Shown: positions 23,027 through 60,175 of the stretch, one piece after another
Position numbering within the stretch: the stretch's first letter is position 1
Layout of the letters: each line of letters opens with the position of its first letter
Assembly (NCBI RefSeq): GCF_016756395.1
Contig: NZ_AP018365.1
Span: forward strand, 1,302,001 to 1,366,000
Direction: 5' to 3'
DNA from: Streptomyces sp. SN-593
GTDB lineage: Bacteria; Actinomycetota; Actinomycetes; Streptomycetales; Streptomycetaceae
DNA length: 64,000 nucleotides
Program-made: the position numbers and the translations under genes
The notes under the pieces: generated by a model
What the model saw: only the letters and a program-made list of their open reading frames with translations
Database searches by the model: none
Told to the model about the DNA's origin: nothing

Positions 23027-23809
23027 TCAGGTCGTCGCCGTCATCTCCTCGATCTTCTCCGCGAACCCGTCCGCGGGCAGCGGCAGGTCCACGGCCTCGT
23101 CGACGAACCGCACGGCGGACCTGACGTAGCCGACGACGGCGGTGGCCTCGTCCGGCACCGTCTTGCGGCGCGCCACCGCGTGCAGGCAGGTCGCGGCGGC
23201 CGCGGTCTCCCGGTCGCGGCCCTCCCGCACCGCGCGCGCCCACAACTCCCGTCCCCGGCGCGGGATCTGGTCGTGCCACCAGTTGGCCTCCTGCACCTCG
23301 CCGAGCGCCAGATGGTGCAGGAACAGGCAGAACTTGGCCTCGCCGTCGTCGGCGCCGGAGGCGAACTGCCACCAGAAGCGGGCGCTGTCCTCCCGGCCGG
23401 CCAGGTGCAGGACGCAGGCCAGCACCCGGGCGCCCTCGGGTTCGAGGATCCGGCTGGGGTCGTCGGCGGACTCCACCGACCCGCTGACGAAGGCGGACAT
23501 CGTCTGGAGGGCCTTGGCCTGGGTGATGACGATCTTGCACAGGTGCCGCAGGTCGTCCGCCGCGTCCAGGCGTTCGCGGTCCGCGGTCTCGCCGTGGTGG
23601 TGGGGCTCCCAGCGGCTGGGCCGGACCGGCTCGCACCACAGGTCGCGGCTGGTGGCGTCGTCGAAGGTGAGCGCGCCGGTCATGATCTGCTGCATCGTGG
23701 CGGCCGCGGCGAGCCGGGCCTGCGCGGCGACCAGCTCCTCACGGGTGTACTCCGGCGAGCGCAGCCGCGCCTTGGCCAGGATCTCCTCAAAAGGCATCGA
23801 CACGGGCAT
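23027..23809 (-). CDS. unknown protein encoded with the ECF sigma factor
   Basis: 260 aa from ATG 23809, overlapping the sigma gene by 23 nt, which implies translational coupling. Mostly helical and soluble (MPFEEILAKARLRSPEYTREELVAAQARLAAAATMQQIMTG...). The middle region (EGARVLACVLHLAGREDSARFWWQFASGADDGEAKFCLFLHHLALGEVQEANWWHDQI) looks like helical-repeat (TPR-like) packing. No transmembrane helix and no zinc anti-sigma (HxxxCxxC) motif is visible. A partner or regulator of the sigma factor is the best guess from position. Confidence 0.7.
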   Translation of the reverse strand: MPVSMPFEEILAKARLRSPEYTREELVAAQARLAAAATMQQIMTGALTFDDATSRDLWCEPVRPSRWEPHHHGETADRERLDAADDLRHLCKIVITQAKALQTMSAFVSGSVESADDPSRILEPEGARVLACVLHLAGREDSARFWWQFASGADDGEAKFCLFLHHLALGEVQEANWWHDQIPRRGRELWARAVREGRDRETAAAATCLHAVARRKTVPDEATAVVGYVRSAVRFVDEAVDLPLPADGFAEKIEEMTATT

Positions 23810-24383
23810 CTTCGCGTCCCTTCAGCTCGGGGTCCAGCGCAGCGGCGAGGCGGCGGCGCGCGTCGCGGGCGGTGGAGCGGACGGTGGCCTCGGTGATCCC
23901 CAGCAGGTCCGCGGTCTGGCGGGTGGTGTAGTCGAGGCTGTAGCGCATCAGGAACACGTCGTGCTGGCGCTCGGGGAGGGCGTCGATGGCCTCCCACAGC
24001 GCGATGCTGACCTCCAGCGCGCCGATCGGGTCCACGGTGTCGTGCGCCAGCTCGGTGGCGAAGATGGCGTCGGCCATCTTCTGCCGGCGGGTGCGGGCAC
24101 GGGCCGCGTCGCGGACCCGGTTCTTCACCAGCCACCAGGCGTAGGCGGCCGGTTCGGGCTGTTCCAGGGCCTTACGCCAGTGCCGTAGCAGTTCCACCAT
24201 GGCCTCGTGGACCGCGTCCTCGGCGTCGGCCCGCGAGCCGAGGTACATCTGGGCCCAGCGCACGTACGCGCCGCGGTACAGCGCGTGGAACGCCTGGAAG
24301 TCCAGCGGCTGGGCCGCCGGGTCCGGGTCCTCGTCGGCCTTCGCGCGGGGCAGGCGGTCGCCGTGTGCCTCGTCGTGGTTCAC
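23787..24383 (-). CDS. ECF-type RNA polymerase sigma factor
   Basis: 198 aa from GTG 24383 after GGAGA. Region 2 at about 28-95 (FHALYRGAYVRWAQMYLGSRADAEDAVHEAMVELLRHW...AYAWWLVKNRVRD), region 4 at about 130-185 (ALPERQHDVFLMRYSLDYTTRQTADLLGITEATVRSTARDARRRLAAAL). It lacks the C-terminal SnoaL-like extension of ECF41 factors. It heads a two-gene operon with the overlapping unknown gene. Its upstream region contains an 18-bp palindrome. Confidence 0.93.
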   Translation of the reverse strand: MNHDEAHGDRLPRAKADEDPDPAAQPLDFQAFHALYRGAYVRWAQMYLGSRADAEDAVHEAMVELLRHWRKALEQPEPAAYAWWLVKNRVRDAARARTRRQKMADAIFATELAHDTVDPIGALEVSIALWEAIDALPERQHDVFLMRYSLDYTTRQTADLLGITEATVRSTARDARRRLAAALDPELKGREDARVDAF

Positions 24384-47593: not shown

Positions 47594-48394
47594 TCAGGCG
47601 CCGGCCGACGGCGGGCCGGCCTCCGCACCTGCGCCCGTACCCGTACCCGCGACCCCGTCCGCGCGCGCGGGGATGCGGCGGTGGACGTCCTCCAGCAGAC
47701 GCAGCATCGACACGCGGAAGACCTCGGCCTGGTGGTCGCCGATGAAGGAGGTGTGCCCGAACACCTCCAGCACGACGAGACCGTGCAGCCGCCCCCATGC
47801 GTCGAGGAAGAGCGCGACCGCGGCGGGCGGCAGCTCCCCCGGCCCCTCGGGCGGCAGGCCGTCCAGGTGCGCCAGCAGTCCGGGCGGGAGCGCGGAGGGG
47901 TCGGCCGCGGCCAGTTGCTCCGCGCCGAACCCGTCGAAGAGTTCGCGGTGGAAGATGGTGCCCATCCGGCGCACCGCCTGCGTGGTGGCGCCCTCGGCGG
48001 GGGCGGCGTAACCGCGCAGCGGCGTGCCGAACAGGAGCTGGAACCGCTCGGGGTGGGTGACCGCCCAGCGGCGGTAGCCCTCGGCCGCCACCACCAGGCG
48101 CGGCAGGTCCGGTCGGTCCGGCGCGCCGTCGAGCGCGGCCTGCACCGCATCGGCCAGGTCCTCGTACTCCTTGGCGATGAGCGAGGTGACCAGGGCGTCC
48201 CGGTTCGGGAAGTAGTGGTAGAGCGCCTGCACGGTCATGCCGAGGCTGCGGGCGACCGCCCGCAGGGACAGCGCCGCGGGGCCGTGCCCGGCGATCCGCC
48301 GCTCGGCGGCCTCCAGGATCTCCCGGACCGCGGTGGCCCGCCGCCGCTCGCGCAACGAGCCTGCGGCCTGGGGGAGTTGATCGTCCTCAAGCAT
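47594..48394 (-). CDS. TetR family transcriptional regulator
   Basis: 266 aa from ATG 48394. TetR HTH at about 20-70 (ATAVREILEAAERRIAGHGPAALSLRAVARSLGMTVQALYHYFPNRDALVTSLIAKEYEDL) followed by a WHG-type ligand domain (EGYRRWAVTHPERFQLLFGTPLRGY). It is divergent from an MmpL transporter gene and probably its repressor. The last 15 residues are a Gly/Thr/Ala tail. Confidence 0.92.
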   Translation of the reverse strand: MLEDDQLPQAAGSLRERRRATAVREILEAAERRIAGHGPAALSLRAVARSLGMTVQALYHYFPNRDALVTSLIAKEYEDLADAVQAALDGAPDRPDLPRLVVAAEGYRRWAVTHPERFQLLFGTPLRGYAAPAEGATTQAVRRMGTIFHRELFDGFGAEQLAAADPSALPPGLLAHLDGLPPEGPGELPPAAVALFLDAWGRLHGLVVLEVFGHTSFIGDHQAEVFRVSMLRLLEDVHRRIPARADGVAGTGTGAGAEAGPPSAGA

Positions 48395-48468: not shown

Positions 48469-48686
48469 CGCCCGGGTCCGGTCCCCTACGGTCGTGGCGG
48501 CGACGGAGCGTGCCGTCCCGGCACCGCACCCGGTCGCGTCGGGATGTCGAGCCCGTGCCGGGCGCCACCGGTCCCCGCGTGCCCGGTCGTCCGATCCCGC
48601 GGCGCCGGCCCCGGTGTCCGATCCTTCCTGCTGCCCGGCCGCTCCCCCGCCGTTTCACCGCACGTACGCAATCAAGGAGATCTCGC

Positions 48687-50915
48687 GTGTTCGAACGCAT
48701 AGCCGAACTGGCGATCCGCCGGTCCCGGCTGGTACTCGTCGTCGCCGTCGTGGTGACGGCCCTCATGGGTGCCGCGGGCAGCGGCGCATTCGCCAAGCTG
48801 CTGGGCGGCGGGTTCGACGACCCCTCCTCCCAGTCCACCCGGGCACGCGAGGTGATCGACCAGAAGTTCGGCGGCGAGACGAACCTGGTCCTGCTGGTCG
48901 CCGCCGACGGCGGCGGACGGATCGACACCCCTGCCGCCGAGCGCGGCGGCCGGGCGCTGGAGGCGCGGCTGAAGCACGAGAGCTCGCTCGCGAACGTCGT
49001 CTCGTACTGGGACACGGGCGACCCCCGACTCCGGTCGCAGGACGGGCGGGAGGCCATGGTGGTGGCGCACGTGGGCGGTGACGAGACGCAGCAGAAGAAG
49101 AGCGCCGAACACCTCGTCGACACCTACAGCGGCACCTTCGACCACACGCTCACCGTCCGGGCCGGCGGCGCGGCGGCGGTGAACGCCGGGATGTCGAAGC
49201 AGGTGGAGAGCGACCTGTTCCTCGCCGAGAGCATCGCCATCCCGCTGACCCTGCTGCTGCTCCTGGTCGTGTTCGGCAGCGTGGTCGCGGCCCTGCTGCC
49301 GCTGGCCATCGCCGTCGTCGCGGTGCTGGGCTCGTTCGCCCTGCTCTTCCTGCTCGGCAGCCTCACCAGCGTCGCCGACACCGCGACCAACCTCACCACG
49401 GCCCTCGGCCTCGGGCTGGGCATCGACTACTCCCTGCTGATGGTCAGCCGCTTCCGGGAGCAACTGGGCACCGGGGCGGGCGTGGAGGACGCGGTCCGGC
49501 GCACGGTGCACACCGCCGGCCGTACCGTCGCGTTCTCCGCGGCGACCGTGGCGGCCGCGCTCGCGGCGCTCCTGGTGTTCCCGCAGTACTTCCTGCGTTC
49601 GTTCGGGTACGCCGGGGTCGGAGTGGTCGCCATCGCGGCGCTCAGCGCGCTGTTCGTCATGCCGCCGCTGCTCGCCGTGCTGGGCCACCGGGTCAACAGC
49701 GGGCGGCTGCCGTGGGCGAGGTCCGCGCCCGCCGGCGCCCGCGTCTCGGTGTGGGCACGGCTGGCGCGCTTTGTCATGCGGCGGCCCGCGCTCACCGCGC
49801 TGCCCGTGCTGGCGGTCCTGCTGGTCGCGGCGAGCCCGCTGCTCGGGATCTCCTTCGGCACGCCCGACGAGCGCGTGCTGCCCACGGACGCCCAGAGCCG
49901 CCAGGTGTCCACGGCGCTCCAGCAGGACTTCGACGGGGACGACGCCACGGCCATGCAGATCATGGTCGACCGGCAGGTGGCCCCGGCGGCCCTGGAGTCG
50001 TACGCGACGCGGCTGTCCCGGCTCGCGGGCGTGGCGCGGGTGGAGACCAGCGCCGCGACCTACGCCGGCGGGCGCCGTTCGGCGGCCGCCGCCGGCAGCG
50101 CGGGCCTCGGCCGGGCCGACGCCCAGCGGATCACCGTGGTCACCTCCGCGGCACCGCGCTCGGACGCCGCGCAGGACCTGGTCCGGCAGGCGCGGGCGCT
50201 GGCCCCGCCCGCCGGGACGCACCCGCTGGTGGGCGGGCAGGACGCCGAACTCGTCGACGCCAAGCACGCCGTCAGCAGCCACCTGCCGCTGGCCATCGGC
50301 CTGGTCGCCCTGACCACCTTCGTGCTGCTCTTCCTGTTCACCGGCAGCGTGGTACAGCCGCTGCGTGCCCTGGTCCTCAACCTGGTCACCCTGGTGACGA
50401 CCCTCGGCGCCATGACGTGGATCTTCCAGGGCGGCCACCTGTCCTCCGTGCTGGGCTTCACCGCCCAGCCGATGGAGGTCTCGATGACGGTGCTGATGTT
50501 CTGCATCGTCTTCGGCCTGTCGATGGACTACGAGGTGTTCGTCACCAGCCGGATCAAGGAACTCCACGACCAGGGCGCGGACACCGGGTCGGCCGTGGCC
50601 GACGGCCTGGGGCACACCGGCCGGATCGTCACCGCCGCGGCCTGCCTGCTCGCGGTGAGCTTCTTCGCGTTCGGCACCGCGAAGGTCAGCTTCATGCAGA
50701 TGTTCGGCCTCGGCAGCGGGCTGGCCATCCTCATCGACGCCGTCGCCATCCGCGGCGTCCTGGTCCCCGCCGCGATGCGCCTGCTCGGCGGTGCGGCCTG
50801 GTACGCGCCCGGGTTCCTGCGCCGGCTGCACGACCGGATCGGGCTGAGCGAGGGCGGGAGCGCGCCCGCGCCGGCCGTGCCCGCGCCGTTGGCGAAGGAC
50901 GCGACGAGCGTCTGA
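48687..50915 (+). CDS. MmpL/RND family membrane transporter
   Basis: 742 aa from GTG 48687, with AAGGAG 7 nt upstream. Two MMPL repeats: TM1 at 10-35, a soluble loop to about 180, TM2-6 (IPLTLLLLLVVFGSVVAALLPLAIAVVAVLGSFALLFLL, LGIDYSLLMVSRFREQL), then a second loop with GTPDERVLPTDAQSRQV and TM8-12 with GLSMDYEVFVTSRIKEL. The Asp-Tyr pairs in GIDYS and SMDYE are the proton-relay residues. It transports lipids or hydrophobic metabolites across the membrane by proton exchange. Paired with the divergent TetR gene. Confidence 0.93.
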   Translation: MFERIAELAIRRSRLVLVVAVVVTALMGAAGSGAFAKLLGGGFDDPSSQSTRAREVIDQKFGGETNLVLLVAADGGGRIDTPAAERGGRALEARLKHESSLANVVSYWDTGDPRLRSQDGREAMVVAHVGGDETQQKKSAEHLVDTYSGTFDHTLTVRAGGAAAVNAGMSKQVESDLFLAESIAIPLTLLLLLVVFGSVVAALLPLAIAVVAVLGSFALLFLLGSLTSVADTATNLTTALGLGLGIDYSLLMVSRFREQLGTGAGVEDAVRRTVHTAGRTVAFSAATVAAALAALLVFPQYFLRSFGYAGVGVVAIAALSALFVMPPLLAVLGHRVNSGRLPWARSAPAGARVSVWARLARFVMRRPALTALPVLAVLLVAASPLLGISFGTPDERVLPTDAQSRQVSTALQQDFDGDDATAMQIMVDRQVAPAALESYATRLSRLAGVARVETSAATYAGGRRSAAAAGSAGLGRADAQRITVVTSAAPRSDAAQDLVRQARALAPPAGTHPLVGGQDAELVDAKHAVSSHLPLAIGLVALTTFVLLFLFTGSVVQPLRALVLNLVTLVTTLGAMTWIFQGGHLSSVLGFTAQPMEVSMTVLMFCIVFGLSMDYEVFVTSRIKELHDQGADTGSAVADGLGHTGRIVTAAACLLAVSFFAFGTAKVSFMQMFGLGSGLAILIDAVAIRGVLVPAAMRLLGGAAWYAPGFLRRLHDRIGLSEGGSAPAPAVPAPLAKDATSV

Positions 50916-54427: not shown

Positions 54428-54587
54428 AGCCGGTCCGCACCCGGTCACCGGCGTGAAATCGATCTTCACGAAATGGCTCCGCCGAACACGACTGTGACCG
54501 AAGAGAGCCACGCACCGCCCGGTTCAGGACCGAAGCCCGTGGGTATTTGCTGTCCATGGCGTTATTGCTTCGGGAAAGGACAGTGTG

Positions 54588-55640
54588 GTGATCAGTGCGT
54601 CGGGGGATGCCTCCGCCGGGTCCGAACCTCCTGAAGGCCGGACCCTTCGGCCTGCGGACCGTGACCGGCCCGCGCGGCTTTCCGAGTCGATCTTCCGCAT
54701 TCCCGTCACCATGCTGCGGGACGCGGACTCGCCCCGGTTGGAAGGCATAGACCGCAATCACGTACGCTCCCTGGTGGCAACGGACGGAAAACTCCCTCCG
54801 ATCATCGTGCATCGTCCGACAATGCGGGTTGTCGACGGTATGCACCGGCTGCACGTCGCGCGATTGAACGAGCAGCAGGAGGTGGAGGTCCGCTATTTCG
54901 ACGGAACCGAGTGGGAGGCTTTCCTGCTGGCCGTCGAGTTGAACATGCGGCACGGTCTGCCGCTGACCTTGTCGGATCGCAAGAAGTCGGCCATGAAGAT
55001 CCTTGAGGGCTGCCCCGAGTGGTCCGACCGGGGCATCGCGGCCAGGACCGGATTGTCCGGCAAGACGGTGGGCGCGCTGCGCCGCAAAGCCGCGGGCCGC
55101 ATCGCCCAGGCCCCGGTCCGGGTCGGACGGGACGGCAGGGCGCGGCCGTTGCACCGCGAGGAATCCCGCCGCCCGGCGCTCGGGCTTCCCTCCGGTCGGG
55201 CGGAAGGCGCACCGCTCGACCGGTTCTCCGGGCAGAACGACAAGTCCCGGCCGGAAGAGGTCGGGACGGGGTTGTTTCCTGCACCACGGACCCGTTTCAC
55301 CCCGCAACTCGTCGGCGGCGAAGGGGCGGACGACGTCGGGGGTCCCGGACCGGGTATTCCGCCGGCCGTCCGCGCCCTGGGTGAATACGCCGACCCGGCC
55401 GCGCAGTTGGCGTCACTGAAGCGCGATCCGGCCGTGAAGTACAGCAAGGACGGCCGGGCGATGATCCGCTGGCTGGAGACGCACATCGTGCGAGACGCGG
55501 ATCTCGGCCAGGTGCTCCAGGCGCCCGCCCACCAGGCGCGGAAGATCGCCACCCTGGCGCGGACCTGCGCGGCGAGCTGGAACGGGATCGCCATGCGGAT
55601 GGATCTCGCCGCCGACGACATCTCCTCGACGTCGGGCTGA
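54588..55640 (+). CDS. StrR family (ParB-like) pathway-specific transcriptional regulator
   Basis: 350 aa from GTG 54588; GTG 54585 is an equal alternative (AAAGGA upstream). Residues about 35-115 form the ParB/Srx-like domain (FRIPVTMLRDADSPRLEGIDRNHVRSLVATDGKLPPIIVHRPTMRVVDGMHRLHVARL) and about 125-165 the HTH (RKKSAMKILEGCPEWSDRGIAARTGLSGKTVGALRR). Both match StrR, NovG and glycopeptide-cluster regulators that activate antibiotic genes by binding GTTCGActG-N11-CagTcGAAc. Such a site lies just after this gene. The C-terminal 180 residues are less conserved, as usual. Confidence 0.9.
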   Translation: MISASGDASAGSEPPEGRTLRPADRDRPARLSESIFRIPVTMLRDADSPRLEGIDRNHVRSLVATDGKLPPIIVHRPTMRVVDGMHRLHVARLNEQQEVEVRYFDGTEWEAFLLAVELNMRHGLPLTLSDRKKSAMKILEGCPEWSDRGIAARTGLSGKTVGALRRKAAGRIAQAPVRVGRDGRARPLHREESRRPALGLPSGRAEGAPLDRFSGQNDKSRPEEVGTGLFPAPRTRFTPQLVGGEGADDVGGPGPGIPPAVRALGEYADPAAQLASLKRDPAVKYSKDGRAMIRWLETHIVRDADLGQVLQAPAHQARKIATLARTCAASWNGIAMRMDLAADDISSTSG

Positions 55641-55824: not shown

Positions 55825-56646
55825 TCAGTTCGCGTACCAGCCGAAGGTGGAGGAGGGGCGGGGGCCGGCGGCCACGTCCAGGCGCGGATCGACGCTGAGG
55901 ATCGCGTGGTGGAGCCGCTGCAACTGCGGCGAGGGGTCGACCCCGAGGTCCTCCACGAGGCGCGCGCGCAGGCGCTGGTAGACGTCGAGGGCGGTCGCCT
56001 GCCGGCCCGAGCGGTACAGCGCCACCATCGCCTGGGCGTGCAGCCCCTCGTGCTCGGGGTGGCGGGCGATGAGGTCGGTGAGTTCCGCGATGAACTCCCG
56101 GTGGCGGCCCAGGCGGAGTTCGGCGTCGATGCGCCGCTCGACGGCCACCAGCCGGCTCTCCTCCAGCCGGGCGGCCTCGATCTCCAGCACGGGCCCCATC
56201 CGGACGTCGACGAGCGCGCCGCCGTCCCACAGGTCGAGTGCGCGGCGCAGCAGGTCGGCGGCCGTGACGTCGTCGCCGACGTCGAAGGCGCGCTGGCCGG
56301 TGGCCACGAGGCGCTCGAACTCGTGGACGTCCACGTGCTCGGGCCGGATCTGGAGCAGGTAGCCGCCGTAGCGGGTCACCAGGACGTCCTTGGCGGTGCC
56401 CGGCTCGTCGGGGCCCATCGCTCTGCCGAGCCGCCGGCGCAGTTGGAGTATGTACGTCTGGAGGGTGGTCAGCGCGCTCGCCGGCAGGTCGCTCCCCCAG
56501 ATCTCCTCCATGAGCGTCGAGATCGGGACGACCCGCCCCGGGTAGAGCGCCAGCAGCGCCAGGATCTGGCGGGGCTTACTCGCGGTGGGAACGACCGTCA
56601 GGCCGTTGACATCGACCTGTAACGGGCCCAGGACCTTCACTCTCAC
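55825..56646 (-). CDS. SARP family transcriptional activator
   Basis: 273 aa from GTG 56646 with GAGGAGG upstream. OmpR-type DNA-binding domain at about 1-95 (VRVKVLGPLQVDVNGLTVVPTASKPRQILALLALYPGRVVPISTLMEEIWGSDLPASALTTLQTYILQLRRRL), then the bacterial activation domain of AfsR/ActII-ORF4 proteins (VDVHEFERLVATGQRAF...QAMVALYRSGRQATALDVYQRLRARLVEDLGVDPSPQLQRLHHAIL). The length matches stand-alone SARPs such as ActII-ORF4. SARPs switch on antibiotic clusters through heptamer repeats. It is convergent with the StrR-like gene and divergent from the second MmpL gene. Confidence 0.94.
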   Translation of the reverse strand: MRVKVLGPLQVDVNGLTVVPTASKPRQILALLALYPGRVVPISTLMEEIWGSDLPASALTTLQTYILQLRRRLGRAMGPDEPGTAKDVLVTRYGGYLLQIRPEHVDVHEFERLVATGQRAFDVGDDVTAADLLRRALDLWDGGALVDVRMGPVLEIEAARLEESRLVAVERRIDAELRLGRHREFIAELTDLIARHPEHEGLHAQAMVALYRSGRQATALDVYQRLRARLVEDLGVDPSPQLQRLHHAILSVDPRLDVAAGPRPSSTFGWYAN

Positions 56647-57348
56647 AGGTTCCTCCTCGAGACCGCCGGCCGTACCAGGACGAGCCGGCACCGAATCCGA
56701 TCCGTAGTGCATGTCGCACGGGCAAACTCCACAGCCTCCCTCTGCGAAACGAGCCGTTGAGTACGTAACCACCGGCACGACCCGGCTCCACAGGTTGTCC
56801 GCCACTGCTCAGACGGTTCTCAGGCGCCGCATGAGGCGTTGTCGAACCGCGGCGGTCGGACCAGCGGGATTCTTGCGACCGCCCGCCGGAGGGGCAAGTG
56901 CGTCTCTGACGTACTGTCAGAGCGCACCCACTGTCCGTCACGGGCCGGTCGAGCGGCTCTTGAGTCGGGTGGGGGGCAGGGAAAAGGGTGGGGCGGGTGG
57001 GATGCCCCCGCGGGAGTCCGGCACACCGCCGCGTCGTCCGAGGCGGCCGGGGAGTCGCCGTCCGTGACAACCCCCGGGGGGCGATTTCCCGCCGCCCACC
57101 CTTTCGGGGGTGCGCCCAAAGGGCCCGATCCCCTGCCCGATCCCCTGCCCGACCAGCGCCCGCGCGGCCGCCTGTCACATGTTCCCACCGGCAGCCGTCA
57201 TAGCAGTGACCAACAGGACCGCCGGCCGCTCGGCGGCGGTGCTGCGACCGTACGCGGCGGGCGATCACGCGCCGCCGCCCTATGCGTTCGCCCCAGAATG
57301 CCGACCGGAGCCGTGGAGAGCGGGCTCCCCGACCCCTTGCGAGCAGGC
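56647..57348. promoter_or_regulatory. SARP / MmpL divergent control region
   Basis: 702 nt. CTCTGAC-GTACT-GTCAGAG (56904-56922) is a perfect 7-5-7 palindrome. CCTGCCCGATC repeats lie at about 57127-57155. The ECF41-type promoter is at 57173-57199. A 48-codon frame (GTG 57206 to TGA 57352) ends in ATGA overlap with the MmpL start, but I cannot show it is translated. Confidence 0.6.
57173..57199 (+). promoter_or_regulatory. ECF41-type promoter P1 upstream of MmpL
   Basis: TGTCACA (57173-57179), 16 nt, CGTC (57196-57199), followed by ATAG-N-AGTGAC. This equals the ECF41 sigma consensus TGTCACA-N16-CGTC. The mmpL start is 149 nt further on. Confidence 0.65.
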
Positions 57349-59529
57349 ATGACTACGATGAAGGAACAACCGGTCACTCCACGTGGCGACAGGGGGTCCG
57401 ACGCCGGATTCACCGCGGGCTACGCCCGGCTGGTCAGCGGGCGCCGCTCGAAGTGGGCGGTGCTGGTGATCTGGCTGGTGCTGATCGCGGCCGGCGGATC
57501 GCTCGGCTCCAAGATCGGTCACGTCCAGAACAACGACCAGGAGACCTGGCTGCCCTCCAGCGCCCAGTCGACCCGGGCGGTCAAACTCGCGGAGCAGCAC
57601 TTCGCGGACCGGCACACCAGCGGCGCCGTGATCGTCTACACCCGCGACAGCGGCCTCACCGCCGCGGACCGGGCCAAGATCACCGCGGACGCGGGCGCCC
57701 TCAAGGCCGTCGCCGTCGGCACCGTGTCCGCGCCGGAGGTCTCCGGCGACGGCAAGGCCGCCTTCGTCAGCCTTCCGCTGCGCACCAGCCCCAGTGACAA
57801 CAACGTGCTCACCCACGCCGTGGACCGGTCGGAGAAGATCGTCCGGGACGGCGCGCCGGCCGGGCTGGAGACCAGGGTCTCCGGCGAGGCCGGCAGCATC
57901 CGGGACTTCGCCGACGTCTACAGCGGGATGGACGGCGCCCTGCTGGGCGCGGCCCTCGCCGTGGTCGCCATCCTGCTGCTGCTGACCTACCGCAGCCCGG
58001 TGCTGTGGCTGGTGCCGCTGATCTCGGTCTTCCTGGCCGCCGAGGTCGCCAGCGGGGTGGTGTACCTCCTCGCCGCCCACGCCGGCCTGCTCGTCAACGG
58101 CCTGAGCACGTACATCCTGATGATCCTCTGCGTGGGTGTCGGCACCGACTACGCGCTGCTGCTGATCGCGCGCTACCGCGAGGAGCTGCACCGGCACGAG
58201 GACCGGCACGAGGCGATGCGGATCGCGGTGGGCCGGTCGGTCTCGGCGCTGTCCGCCTCCGCGGCCACGGTCGTGCTGGCCTCGTTGTGCCTGGTCTTCG
58301 GCAAGATGAACTCCACCCAGGGCCTCGGCCCGGTGGTGGCCATCGGGGTCGCGGTGGTCTTCCTGGCCATGACCTCGCTGCTGCCGGCGCTGCTGGTCGT
58401 CCTGGGCCGGTGGACGTTCTGGCCGTTCGTTCCGCGCCACACCCCCGGCCACGAGGCGGGCACGGAGCAGGAGCACGGCGTGTGGGCCAGGGTGGCCGGC
58501 ACCGTCGCCCGCCGGCCGCGCGTGGTCTGGGCCTGCTGCATCGTCGTCCTGGCCGCGCTGGCGGTCGGCACCGCCACGGTGGAGACCGGCCAGACCCAGG
58601 CGCAGCAGTTCACCAAGTCCGTCGGCTCCATCGAGGGCCAGAAGATCCTTGCCGCGCACTTCCCCGCCGGCGCCTCGGAGCCCGCCGACGTCTACGTGCC
58701 CGCCGCGGGCGCCGACAGCGCGCTCCAGGTCGTCCGAACGGTGCCCGGCGTGCAGTCGGCGGCCGTCGACCGGTCCGCCGGCGGCTGGACCCACATCACC
58801 GCCGTGTTCAAGGACGCCCCGGACACCCAGGCCGCCCGGGACACCGTCCACCGCATGCGCACCGCCCTCGACCAGGGGCCGGCCGGGGCGTCCGACGCGG
58901 TCGTCGGCGGCCAGAGCGCCGTCGCGCTGGACACCGCCAACGCGACCAAGGACGAGGAGATGCTGCTCATCCCGCTGGTCCTGCTGGTCGTCCTGGTCAT
59001 GCTGATCCTGGTGCTGCGCTCGGTGGTCGCCCCGATCGTGCTGCTGCTGTCGGTGATCCTGTCCTACGCCGCCGCCATCGGGGCCGCCTCGCTGCTCTTC
59101 CACGCCATCGGCCACCCGCACATGGACCGCAGCCTGCTGCTGATCGGGTTCCTGTTCCTGGTCGCCCTCGGCGTGGACTACACGATCTTCCTGATGGCCC
59201 GGGTGCGCGAGGAGGTCCGGCACCGCGGGCACCGCGACGGCGTGCTCACCGGCCTGACCGTCACCGGCGGCGTCATCACCTCCGCCGGGATCGTCCTGGC
59301 GGCCACCTTCTGCGTCCTGGCCACCATCCCGACCGTGTCCTCGCTCCAGGAGGGCCTGCTCATCGCGGTCGGCATCCTGCTGGACACCTTCCTGGTCCGC
59401 AGCCTGCTGGTGCCCGCCCTGTCCCTGTCCCTCGGCCCCGCCATCTGGCGCCCGGGGCACCCCGAGACGGAGGCGCCGCCCGAGGGCGAGCGTCCCCTGG
59501 AGACCACCCGCGCGGACGTCGGCGCCTGA
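57349..59529 (+). CDS. MmpL/RND family membrane transporter
   Basis: 726 aa from ATG 57349; ATG 57358 is an alternative, and both have weak ribosome sites. TM1 at about 32-52 (SKWAVLVIWLVLIAAGGSLGSKI), a loop, TM2-6 with GVGTDYALLLIARYREELHRHEDRHEAM, a second loop, and TM8-12 with ALGVDYTIFLMARVREEVRHRGHRDGVLTGL. The Asp-Tyr pairs mark the proton path. It is only distantly related to the other MmpL here (48687). It is divergent from a SARP and carries an ECF41-type promoter, so it is probably induced under that sigma factor. Substrate unknown. Confidence 0.92.
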   Translation: MTTMKEQPVTPRGDRGSDAGFTAGYARLVSGRRSKWAVLVIWLVLIAAGGSLGSKIGHVQNNDQETWLPSSAQSTRAVKLAEQHFADRHTSGAVIVYTRDSGLTAADRAKITADAGALKAVAVGTVSAPEVSGDGKAAFVSLPLRTSPSDNNVLTHAVDRSEKIVRDGAPAGLETRVSGEAGSIRDFADVYSGMDGALLGAALAVVAILLLLTYRSPVLWLVPLISVFLAAEVASGVVYLLAAHAGLLVNGLSTYILMILCVGVGTDYALLLIARYREELHRHEDRHEAMRIAVGRSVSALSASAATVVLASLCLVFGKMNSTQGLGPVVAIGVAVVFLAMTSLLPALLVVLGRWTFWPFVPRHTPGHEAGTEQEHGVWARVAGTVARRPRVVWACCIVVLAALAVGTATVETGQTQAQQFTKSVGSIEGQKILAAHFPAGASEPADVYVPAAGADSALQVVRTVPGVQSAAVDRSAGGWTHITAVFKDAPDTQAARDTVHRMRTALDQGPAGASDAVVGGQSAVALDTANATKDEEMLLIPLVLLVVLVMLILVLRSVVAPIVLLLSVILSYAAAIGAASLLFHAIGHPHMDRSLLLIGFLFLVALGVDYTIFLMARVREEVRHRGHRDGVLTGLTVTGGVITSAGIVLAATFCVLATIPTVSSLQEGLLIAVGILLDTFLVRSLLVPALSLSLGPAIWRPGHPETEAPPEGERPLETTRADVGA

Positions 59530-59630
59530 CGACCGCGTGGGGGGAGAAGGGGCGTCGCGCCGACCCCCGCGGTGCGGCGCCCCACTCGTGGCGGACGACG
59601 CCGGCGGCGGGCGGCCCTGAGGGCCGCGCC

Positions 59631-59676
59631 GTCACTCCTGTCACACTCGCGGGCCGCCGGACGTCATAGGAGTGAC
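59631..59676. promoter_or_regulatory. ECF41-type promoter P2 upstream of the carboxymuconolactone decarboxylase gene
   Basis: TGTCACA (59639-59645), 16 nt, CGTC (59662-59665), then ATAG-N-AGTGAC as at P1. The promoter is framed by a 9-bp inverted repeat GTCACTCCT (59631-59639) / AGGAGTGAC (59668-59676). The ATG is 57 nt downstream of CGTC. Confidence 0.75.
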
Positions 59677-59722: not shown

Positions 59723-60175
59723 ATGGAAGCGCGCATGAAGAACCCGGCGATGATCCTCAACGCCACCCAGTCCGTCCAGGACATGTACAAGGCCATCTAC
59801 GCCGGCGGCGTCCCGAAGACGACGCTCGACCTGGTCCACCTGCGCGCAAGCCAGATCAACGGGTGCAGCTCGTGCGTGGACTCCGGTTCGCGCGGTGCCC
59901 TCAAGAGCGGCGAGAGCGCGGAGCGGCTGTTCGCGGTCGCCGCCTGGCGCGAGACCACCCTGTTCACCGACGAGGAGCGGGCCGCGCTGGCGCTGGCGGA
60001 GGCCGCGACCCGGCTGTCCGACCGCAGCGACGCGGTGCCGGACGACGTCTGGGACGCGGCCGCCGACCACTTCGACGAGAAGGGCCTGGCCGCCCTGGTG
60101 CTGATGGTCGCCCTGACCAACTTCTTCAACCGGCTCAACGTCACCACCAAGCAGATGGCCGGCGACTGGGGCTGA
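59723..60175 (+). CDS. AhpD-like carboxymuconolactone decarboxylase family protein
   Basis: 150 aa from ATG 59723 after AAAGGAA. CMD/AhpD fold with the redox motif CSSCVD (Cys48, Cys51) and a downstream acidic/Leu-rich helix pair (LFTDEERAALALAEAATRLSDRSDAVPDDVWDAAADHFDEKGLAALVLMVALTNFFNRLNV). The CxxC pair makes it a peroxidase- or reductase-type member rather than a true decarboxylase. CMD genes are the classic 'COE' targets of ECF41 sigma factors, and this one has the matching promoter; the sigma gene is not in this window. Confidence 0.93.
   Translation: MEARMKNPAMILNATQSVQDMYKAIYAGGVPKTTLDLVHLRASQINGCSSCVDSGSRGALKSGESAERLFAVAAWRETTLFTDEERAALALAEAATRLSDRSDAVPDDVWDAAADHFDEKGLAALVLMVALTNFFNRLNVTTKQMAGDWG

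What the first reader, a model, noticed from the sequence alone, without database searches (positions are those of the whole stretch)
57173..59676. Two near-identical ECF41-type promoters drive an MmpL transporter gene and a CMD gene
57173-57199 and 59639-59665 both read CCTGTCACA-N16-CGTCATAG-N-AGTGAC once the flanks are included. TGTCACA-N16-CGTC is the consensus known for ECF41 sigma factors, which normally serve one neighbouring carboxymuconolactone decarboxylase, oxidoreductase or epimerase gene. Here one promoter fits the rule (CMD gene 59723), but the other precedes an RND/MmpL transporter. No ECF41 sigma gene is in the window, so a distant factor would control a small regulon coupling export to a CxxC peroxidase-like protein.
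Basis: partly seen in the sequence, partly recalled or inferred. Interest (0 to 1): 0.82.

Follow-up and report, generated by a model that had tools for sequence, protein, structure and literature searches.

The report
Sigma-factor regulon in polyketide gene cluster
Two near-identical DNA sites stand before a transporter gene and a redox-protein gene in an actinomycete, and both are likely read by one specialised sigma factor encoded about 35,000 bases away at the far end of the same predicted antibiotic gene cluster, which would let the cell switch on export and protection together.

Summary
Confirmed and extended. TGTCACA-N16-CGTCATAG-N-AGTGAC stands at 57173 and 59639. The extended motif has three places in the 8.97-Mb genome (up to 3 mismatches; reversed control 0). 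The third, 31 kb past the window, precedes a paralogous CMD gene divergent from an ECF41-like sigma gene. Between them lies a type II PKS cluster with a kinamycin-type hydrazino cassette. The sigma gene is thus cluster-linked, not distant.

In Streptomyces sp. CNH099 and S. atriruber the orthologous sigma gene lies divergent from MmpL, CMD follows, and each target has the motif. Upstream of MmpL the core has at most 1 mismatch in 10 of 82 loci, at least 2 in the other 72. In the window genome and congener G031 the module is split: the MmpL promoter is intact beside MmpL and decayed beside the sigma gene; the sigma promoter is the reverse.

Best reading: a cluster-specific export/redox regulon. 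The sigma clade lacks the WLPEP hallmark, so I call it ECF41-like. Transcription and sensing are untested.

The parts
57173..57210 (+). Promoter-like site of MmpL (P_MmpL): -35 TGTCACA 57173-57179, -10 CGTC 57196-57199, conserved TAGCAGTGAC to 57210; predicted start of transcription near G57206 (inferred by analogy with the G start in PMC3426412)
   Evidence: matrix score 35.1; core 0 mismatches
57197..57234 (-). Decayed relic of the sigma gene's own promoter, face to face with P_MmpL (intact in S. atriruber L106, 28.0; here -12.7)
   Evidence: alignment; scores; 7 of 11 core bases differ
57349..59529 (+). MMPL/RND-family transporter, 726 aa from ATG 57349 (ATG 57361 also possible); likely exporter of the cluster's product
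   Evidence: PF03176 376.7 bits; TIGR00833 434 bits, below its cutoff 874.7
59639..59676 (+). Promoter-like site of the CMD gene (P_CMD1)
   Evidence: matrix score 35.2
59723..60175 (+). CMD1: carboxymuconolactone decarboxylase/AhpD-like protein, 150 aa, CSSC motif; 87% identical to CMD2 at C1:1397120-1397578
   Evidence: PF02627, TIGR00778 ahpD_dom above cutoff; paralogue
55825..56805 (-). SARP/AfsR-type regulator (BTAD) upstream of the MmpL gene; context, likely cluster regulator; start not fixed
   Evidence: PF03704, PF00486

Best explanation
The two sites are near-identical promoter-like elements that likely are both read by one SnoaL-fused, ECF41-like sigma factor whose gene lies about 35 kb downstream at the far end of a predicted diazobenzofluorene-type polyketide cluster, so that this sigma factor would switch on an MmpL exporter together with two CxxC CMD proteins. 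Shown by sequence: three copies of one extended motif in the genome, upstream of MmpL, CMD1 and CMD2; a sigma gene with sigma2, sigma4 and an NTF2/SnoaL-like C-terminal domain divergent from CMD2; type II PKS genes, an angucycline-type oxygenase and a hydrazino cassette in between or next to it; the compact sigma|MmpL-CMD arrangement in two related Streptomyces; and reciprocal decay of the two halves of an ancestral face-to-face promoter pair after the module was split in the window genome and in G031. Inferred: that the sigma factor initiates at these sites, that MmpL exports the cluster's product, that the CMD proteins act in thiol redox protection, and that the SnoaL-like domain senses a cluster metabolite or a stress it causes. 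The likely circuit is feed-forward self-protection: product or redox signal, release of the sigma factor by its C-terminal domain, export plus detoxification, with weak autoregulation from a site upstream of the sigma gene.
For: Motif. Sigma gene and CMD2; SigJ 5xe7 is the best solved relative by sequence (E 2.6e-37) and by fold, with many NTF2-like folds (ketosteroid isomerase, TerC) for the C-terminal part (model mean pLDDT 80.1, pTM 0.46). Cluster; cassette definition from passages of PMC6133997 and PMC12154649. Conserved wiring: sigma divergent from MmpL with the motif 169 and 171 bp before the MmpL start in L093 and L106, CMD after it with its own motif; same triple in congener G031. Core within 1 mismatch upstream of MmpL in 10 of 82 loci, at least 2 mismatches in the other 72; random 480-base windows 4 of 1928. 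In the 80 named MmpL loci (1,289,120 bases) 25 places score 20 or more, reversed-sequence control 0; by position they precede MmpL (11), CMD (6), an epimerase-type gene (4) or a sigma gene (4) (the epimerase of L094 and L096 is by analogy with L095). Split module: L106 against the MmpL upstream region 71% over 185 bases and against the sigma|CMD2 region 75% over 110 bases. Core mismatches of 11: P_MmpL 0/0 at the MmpL locus but 6/4 at the sigma locus; P_sigma 1/1 at the sigma locus but 7/6 at the MmpL locus (G000/G031). Gene order around sigma-CMD-VOC-ferredoxin-KinJ-like-amidase-GS is the same in L093 with MmpL present.
Against: No transcript data. The matrix partly rests on sites fetched with the window's own extended motif, so its extended half is not independent; among 11 training sites from loci fetched by the core alone only 3 have TGAC there. 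8 of 18 members of the MmpL clade lack a site upstream of MmpL, though 5 of these 8 (L098, L099, L100, L103, L104) have a CMD gene next to MmpL and 4 of those 5 a site scoring 15 or more before it (L099 none at 9 or more). In 388 family genomes 9 have an MmpL match at E 1e-200; of the 10 loci, 3 have a site of 20 or more before MmpL (own, G031, L185). L102 and L105 have the site but no cassette and no sigma relative within 8 kb. In L093 the aligned sigma promoter is decayed although the sigma gene is still there (-15.5), and the site before the sigma gene in the window genome is weak (9.3), so autoregulation is doubtful. The genome has two other sigma genes of the same clade (L010, L011) that could read the sites. 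The sigma factor lacks WLPEP.
Confidence: 0.8

Rival explanations
1. The sites are sigma promoters, but a paralogous ECF41-like factor encoded elsewhere (C1:4447808 or C1:4548455) reads them, alone or with the cluster's own factor.
For: Two further sigma genes of the WLPEP-less clade at about 50% identity, and four WLPEP-type ones, are in the genome.
Against: The three motif copies are all in the module of the C1:1396007 gene, which keeps company with MmpL and CMD in L093 and L106. The regex scan of the L010 and L011 loci found no such site near those paralogues.
Confidence: 0.1
2. The conserved sequence is a binding site of a classical repressor or activator, not a sigma promoter; the arms GTCAC and GTGAC look like an inverted repeat.
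For: In L106 the core CGTCATAGCAGTGACG is palindrome-like, and AGTGAC downstream of the -10 is conserved in this subgroup.
Against: Bipartite conservation with a fixed 16-base spacer equal to the published ECF41 promoter; the palindrome in L106, L044, L064, L075 and L076 is explained by two overlapping face-to-face promoters, each leading to a gene. Three of 11 core-fetched sites only have the downstream TGAC.
Confidence: 0.06
3. The MmpL site is a passive passenger, copied with neighbouring DNA and without function.
For: MmpL and CMD1 look like a relocated copy; eight clade members do without the site.
Against: Where MmpL was lost the same site decayed (6 and 4 of 11 core bases changed), where MmpL stayed it is unchanged at 0 of 11 in both species; it is kept in MmpL genes down to 63% identity.
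Confidence: 0.04

Closest known systems
ECF41 sigma factors (Ecf41Bli, Ecf41Rsp, M. tuberculosis SigJ)
   Same: sigma2-sigma4 core with a fused SnoaL/NTF2-like C-terminal domain, CMD neighbour, promoter TGTCACA-n16-CGTC (PMC3426412 passages)
   Different: No WLPEP linker motif; at least three target sites instead of the single target reported there; targets include an MmpL transporter; embedded in a polyketide cluster
ECF56 SigG1 of Streptomyces tsukubaensis
   Same: SnoaL_2-fused ECF factor without the ECF41 motifs; second-best fold match 7qh5 (PMC7730460 passages)
   Different: SigG1 has a cognate anti-sigma protein RsfG and other targets; sequence match of our factor to 7qh5 is weak (E 1.1e-5 against 2.6e-37 for SigJ)
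Kinamycin/lomaiviticin/fluostatin (diazobenzofluorene) gene clusters
   Same: Type II PKS, PgaE/FlsO1-type oxygenase, ferredoxin plus the cassette order KinJ-like, amidase, glutamine synthetase, adenylosuccinate lyase, N-acetyltransferase
   Different: Known kinamycin regulation in S. ambofaciens is described through SARP and gamma-butyrolactone-type receptors (PMC7343708 passages); the passages I saw name no cluster sigma factor
Cluster-situated ECF factors such as those of lantibiotic and antimycin clusters (recalled, no call)
   Same: A sigma gene inside a biosynthetic cluster
   Different: Those are other ECF groups and drive biosynthetic genes; here the found sites precede export and redox genes only

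Membership tests
ECF41 sigma factors | sigma2 and sigma4 domains | tested here: met
   PF04542 1.1e-14, PF08281 1.4e-10, both above cutoff
ECF41 sigma factors | C-terminal extension with SnoaL_2/NTF2-like fold | tested here: met
   PF12680 E 5e-4 but 21 bits, below its cutoff 27; fold matches SigJ and NTF2-like proteins. P0001, 95% identical, carries PF12680 in the precomputed list
ECF41 sigma factors | WLPEP motif in the linker | tested here: not met
   Absent in 25 of 25 relatives at 46% identity or more, the factor included; W[LIV]PEP in 7 of 9 at 38% or less. The two others (L050, L062) show PEPLL and were counted with the WLPEP group in the tree, where the group is one side of a 100/100 branch
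ECF41 sigma factors | C-terminal NPDKL motif | tested here: inconclusive
   Aligned stretch reads GDPERL; P278 and L281 are at least 90% conserved (motif from PMC7730460)
ECF41 sigma factors | Neighbouring COE gene (CMD, oxidoreductase or epimerase) | tested here: met
   CMD2 divergent, 238 bases apart
ECF41 sigma factors | Target promoter TGTCACA-n16-CGTC | tested here: met
   Sequence match at CMD2, CMD1, MmpL; use by the factor not tested
ECF41 sigma factors | Single target gene or operon | tested here: not met
   Three sites plus a weak one before the sigma gene
Diazobenzofluorene gene cluster | Minimal type II PKS and angucycline oxygenase | tested here: met
   KS pair and ACP; PgaE, CabE, FlsO1 best solved relatives
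Diazobenzofluorene gene cluster | Hydrazino cassette (KinI-KinN type) | tested here: met
   Ferredoxin, 662-aa protein without Pfam match, amidase, adenylosuccinate lyase, acetyltransferase; the glutamine synthetase domain was tested on the L093 orthologue, the own gene seen as an ORF. KinJ itself was not compared
Diazobenzofluorene gene cluster | Product and nitrite-forming genes | not tested
   No chemistry; FzmL/M homologues not sought
MMPL family | PF03176 | tested here: met
   376.7 bits against cutoff 20.5
ActII-type transporters (TIGR00833) | Curated cutoff | tested here: not met
   434.4 bits against 874.7
CMD/AhpD-like | PF02627 and CxxC | tested here: met
   CSSC in CMD1, CGPC in CMD2

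The most novel reading that the evidence does not exclude
A one-component, metabolite-sensing sigma switch for self-protection: a WLPEP-less sister clade of ECF41 whose SnoaL-like domain, a fold shared with polyketide cyclases, binds the cluster's own aromatic polyketide and turns on its MmpL exporter and CxxC redox partners; the module is common to several diazobenzofluorene-type clusters, and in this species it was torn apart to the two ends of the cluster, leaving fossil halves of its bidirectional promoter.
Probability: 0.35. Interest if true: 0.78.

Novelty: new variant of a known kind. Interest (0 to 1): 0.62.

Why it matters
ECF41 factors were reported to serve one neighbouring COE gene, and their signal is unknown (PMC3426412, passages). 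Here a related factor has a small regulon with a transporter in it, inside clusters whose type II PKS genes and cassette point to reactive diazo or hydrazine chemistry. That offers a concrete ligand candidate, the cluster's own product, and a testable self-resistance circuit. The split module with reciprocal promoter decay is a natural experiment that ties each half-promoter to its gene.

Tried and rejected
Rejected: chance (extended motif 3 places, control 0); distant regulon (the sigma gene is in the same cluster); MmpL site as passenger (reciprocal decay); classical operator (spacing, overlapping promoters). Weak points found on re-check: the bare core is not enriched by number in the own genome (4 against 3); the matrix is partly circular in its extended half, so I repeated the test with core mismatches only, with the same 10 of 82. 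Seven of 1932 random windows also scored 15 or more; their scores equal those of listed sites before CMD or epimerase genes in the same loci. In one search four of 1928 random windows had 1 mismatch or fewer; I did not look up where they lie. First regex was too strict and saw the MmpL motif only in L093 and L106; relaxed.

Led nowhere: five other BGTCACA-N16-SGTCA matches in the genome score 3.2 or less. CMD1/CMD2 relation to the CMD genes of L093 and L106 is unresolved in the tree. A family-wide search for the KinJ-like protein, meant to give a denominator of clusters, did not complete. Literature: ten searches used; ECF41 with biosynthetic gene cluster 2 papers, ECF sigma factor with MmpL and biosynthetic gene cluster 0, ECF41 with secondary metabolite 3, ECF sigma factor with carboxymuconolactone decarboxylase and Streptomyces 2, kinamycin with sigma factor 16. 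Of these I read passages of PMC3426412, PMC7730460 and PMC7343708 and otherwise saw listings; none of the titles or abstract starts describes such a circuit. Also read in passages: PMC6133997, PMC12154649, PMC8103513.
Full report
OBSERVATION. The window pattern has 2 matches, 0.17 expected. Genome-wide the loose core has 4 matches against 3 reversed-control matches, so the bare core is not enriched by number; the extended motif is specific: 3 places with up to 3 mismatches, control 0. The third place is C1:1397040, 31 kb past the window's end. Across 35 genus genomes the N16 core gives 95 against 16 control matches (my sum).

THE MISSING SIGMA GENE. At the third place the motif precedes CMD2 (C1:1397120-1397578, 87% identical to CMD1). 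Divergent from it is a sigma gene, C1:1396007-1396882, with sigma2 and sigma4 above Pfam cutoffs and a SnoaL_2 match below cutoff. The best solved relative is SigJ (E 2.6e-37). An AlphaFold2 model (27 sequences, mean pLDDT 80.1, pTM 0.46) matches SigJ first and SigG1 second by Foldseek, and NTF2-like folds for the C-terminal part; global TM-scores are low (0.29 for SigJ), so domain placement is not supported. The genome has 16 matches to this protein at E 0.001, 7 of them spanning most of it.

THE CLUSTER. ORF calling and domain searches show a KS pair, ACP, cyclase, an oxygenase closest to PgaE, CabE and FlsO1, and directly after CMD2 a VOC protein, a ferredoxin, a 662-aa protein without Pfam or NCBIfam match, an amidase, a glutamine synthetase homologue, an adenylosuccinate lyase and an acetyltransferase. 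This is the order of genes described for the hydrazino cassette of kinamycin and its kin (PMC6133997; PMC12154649; passages). The window's MmpL and CMD1 stand at the other end, next to a SARP regulator. The product is not known.

CONSERVED WIRING. Of 80 named loci with MmpL relatives (the best 80 of 582), L093 (Streptomyces sp. CNH099) and L106 (S. atriruber) have the sigma gene (74% and 79%) divergent from MmpL, the motif 169 and 171 bases before MmpL, and CMD behind it with its own motif. L094-L096 have a sigma relative (46-47%) divergent from MmpL, sites in both directions, and behind MmpL another site and, in L095, an epimerase-type gene followed by a second sigma relative (59-60% in the three). 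L101 has sites before MmpL, an epimerase-type gene and a CMD gene. These six loci and G031 carry the cassette. L102 (Dactylosporangium) and L105 (Embleya) have the MmpL site without cassette or sigma relative within the 8 kb held on each side.

STATISTICS. A 38-base matrix from 31 sites before CMD or sigma genes in other genomes, none before MmpL, gives 35.1 and 35.2 for the window sites and 35.6 for CMD2; the next best in 125 kb is 9.3, which lies 101 bases before the sigma gene. Over 82 MmpL loci (80 named, G031, window) 10 score 20.7 or more within 450 bases upstream and 72 score 2.6 or less. Because 20 of the sites were fetched with the extended motif, I repeated it with the 11 core bases: 10 loci have 0 or 1 mismatch, 72 have 2 or more; random windows 4 of 1928. 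In the named loci 25 places score 20 or more, reversed control 0. The 10 lie in one MmpL clade of 18 (100/99), where the label needs 2 changes; 8 members lack it. In 388 family genomes only 9 have such an MmpL at E 1e-200; besides own and G031 one locus (L185) has the site, with the same motif sequence as L105.

A SPLIT MODULE WITH FOSSIL PROMOTERS. In L106 the MmpL promoter and a promoter facing the sigma gene overlap at their -10 ends. In the window genome and G031 this region exists twice. Upstream of MmpL it aligns to L106 at 71% over 185 bases; between sigma and CMD2 at 75% over 110 bases. Core mismatches (G000/G031): P_MmpL 0/0 beside MmpL, 6/4 beside sigma; P_sigma 1/1 beside sigma, 7/6 beside MmpL. 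Gene order around sigma and CMD2 equals that of L093 without MmpL. The simplest history is duplication of the module, or of MmpL-CMD, to the other end of the cluster, then loss of one partner on each side. Against a clean picture: in L093 the sigma promoter is decayed though the gene remains (6 mismatches), and the CMD tree does not resolve the duplication.

MECHANISM. Likely the cluster's sigma factor transcribes mmpL, cmd1 and cmd2, and perhaps itself. In ECF41 the fused domain regulates activity without a separate anti-sigma factor (PMC3426412, passages). I infer a signal tied to the cluster's product or its redox effect, export by MmpL and thiol-based protection by CMD. None of these steps was tested here.

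KNOWN OR NEW. It works like ECF41 and shares promoter, COE partner and domain plan, but two features tested fail: WLPEP (0 of 25 in its clade; 7 of 9 in the sister group by regex) and single target. So it is an ECF41-like sister clade with a transporter in its regulon: a new variant of a known kind.

Noticed in passing
window 48510-50915 (+): A second MMPL transporter gene (PF03176, 272.5 bits), with a regulator-like ORF divergent at 47594-48394; no ECF41-type site in the window near it.
   Followed up: partly
window 54585-55640 (+): ORF that looks to me like a ParB/StrR-type regulator, but without any Pfam or NCBIfam match.
   Followed up: no
G000 C1:1372422-1372856 (L005, beyond the window): Third CMD relative in the cluster (49% to CMD1) whose CxxC place reads GRLYTL, so it has lost the thiol pair.
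   Followed up: no
L094, L095, L096: MmpL flanked by two different sigma relatives (46-47% and 59-60% to ours), with an extra site (score 23.5) directly at the start of the divergent one.
   Followed up: partly
L044, L064, L075, L076: Overlapping face-to-face sites between sigma and CMD genes: one bidirectional promoter with shared -10 region.
   Followed up: partly
window 23787-24383 (-): Short ECF sigma gene with an unrelated ORF overlapping its end; only 31% to the cluster sigma and no SnoaL-like part seen.
   Followed up: no
window 59672: The predicted CMD1 start of transcription falls on an in-frame GTG (59672), which would allow a leaderless, 17-residue longer reading; ATG 59723 has a ribosome-site-like GAAAGGAAAG before it.
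   Followed up: no
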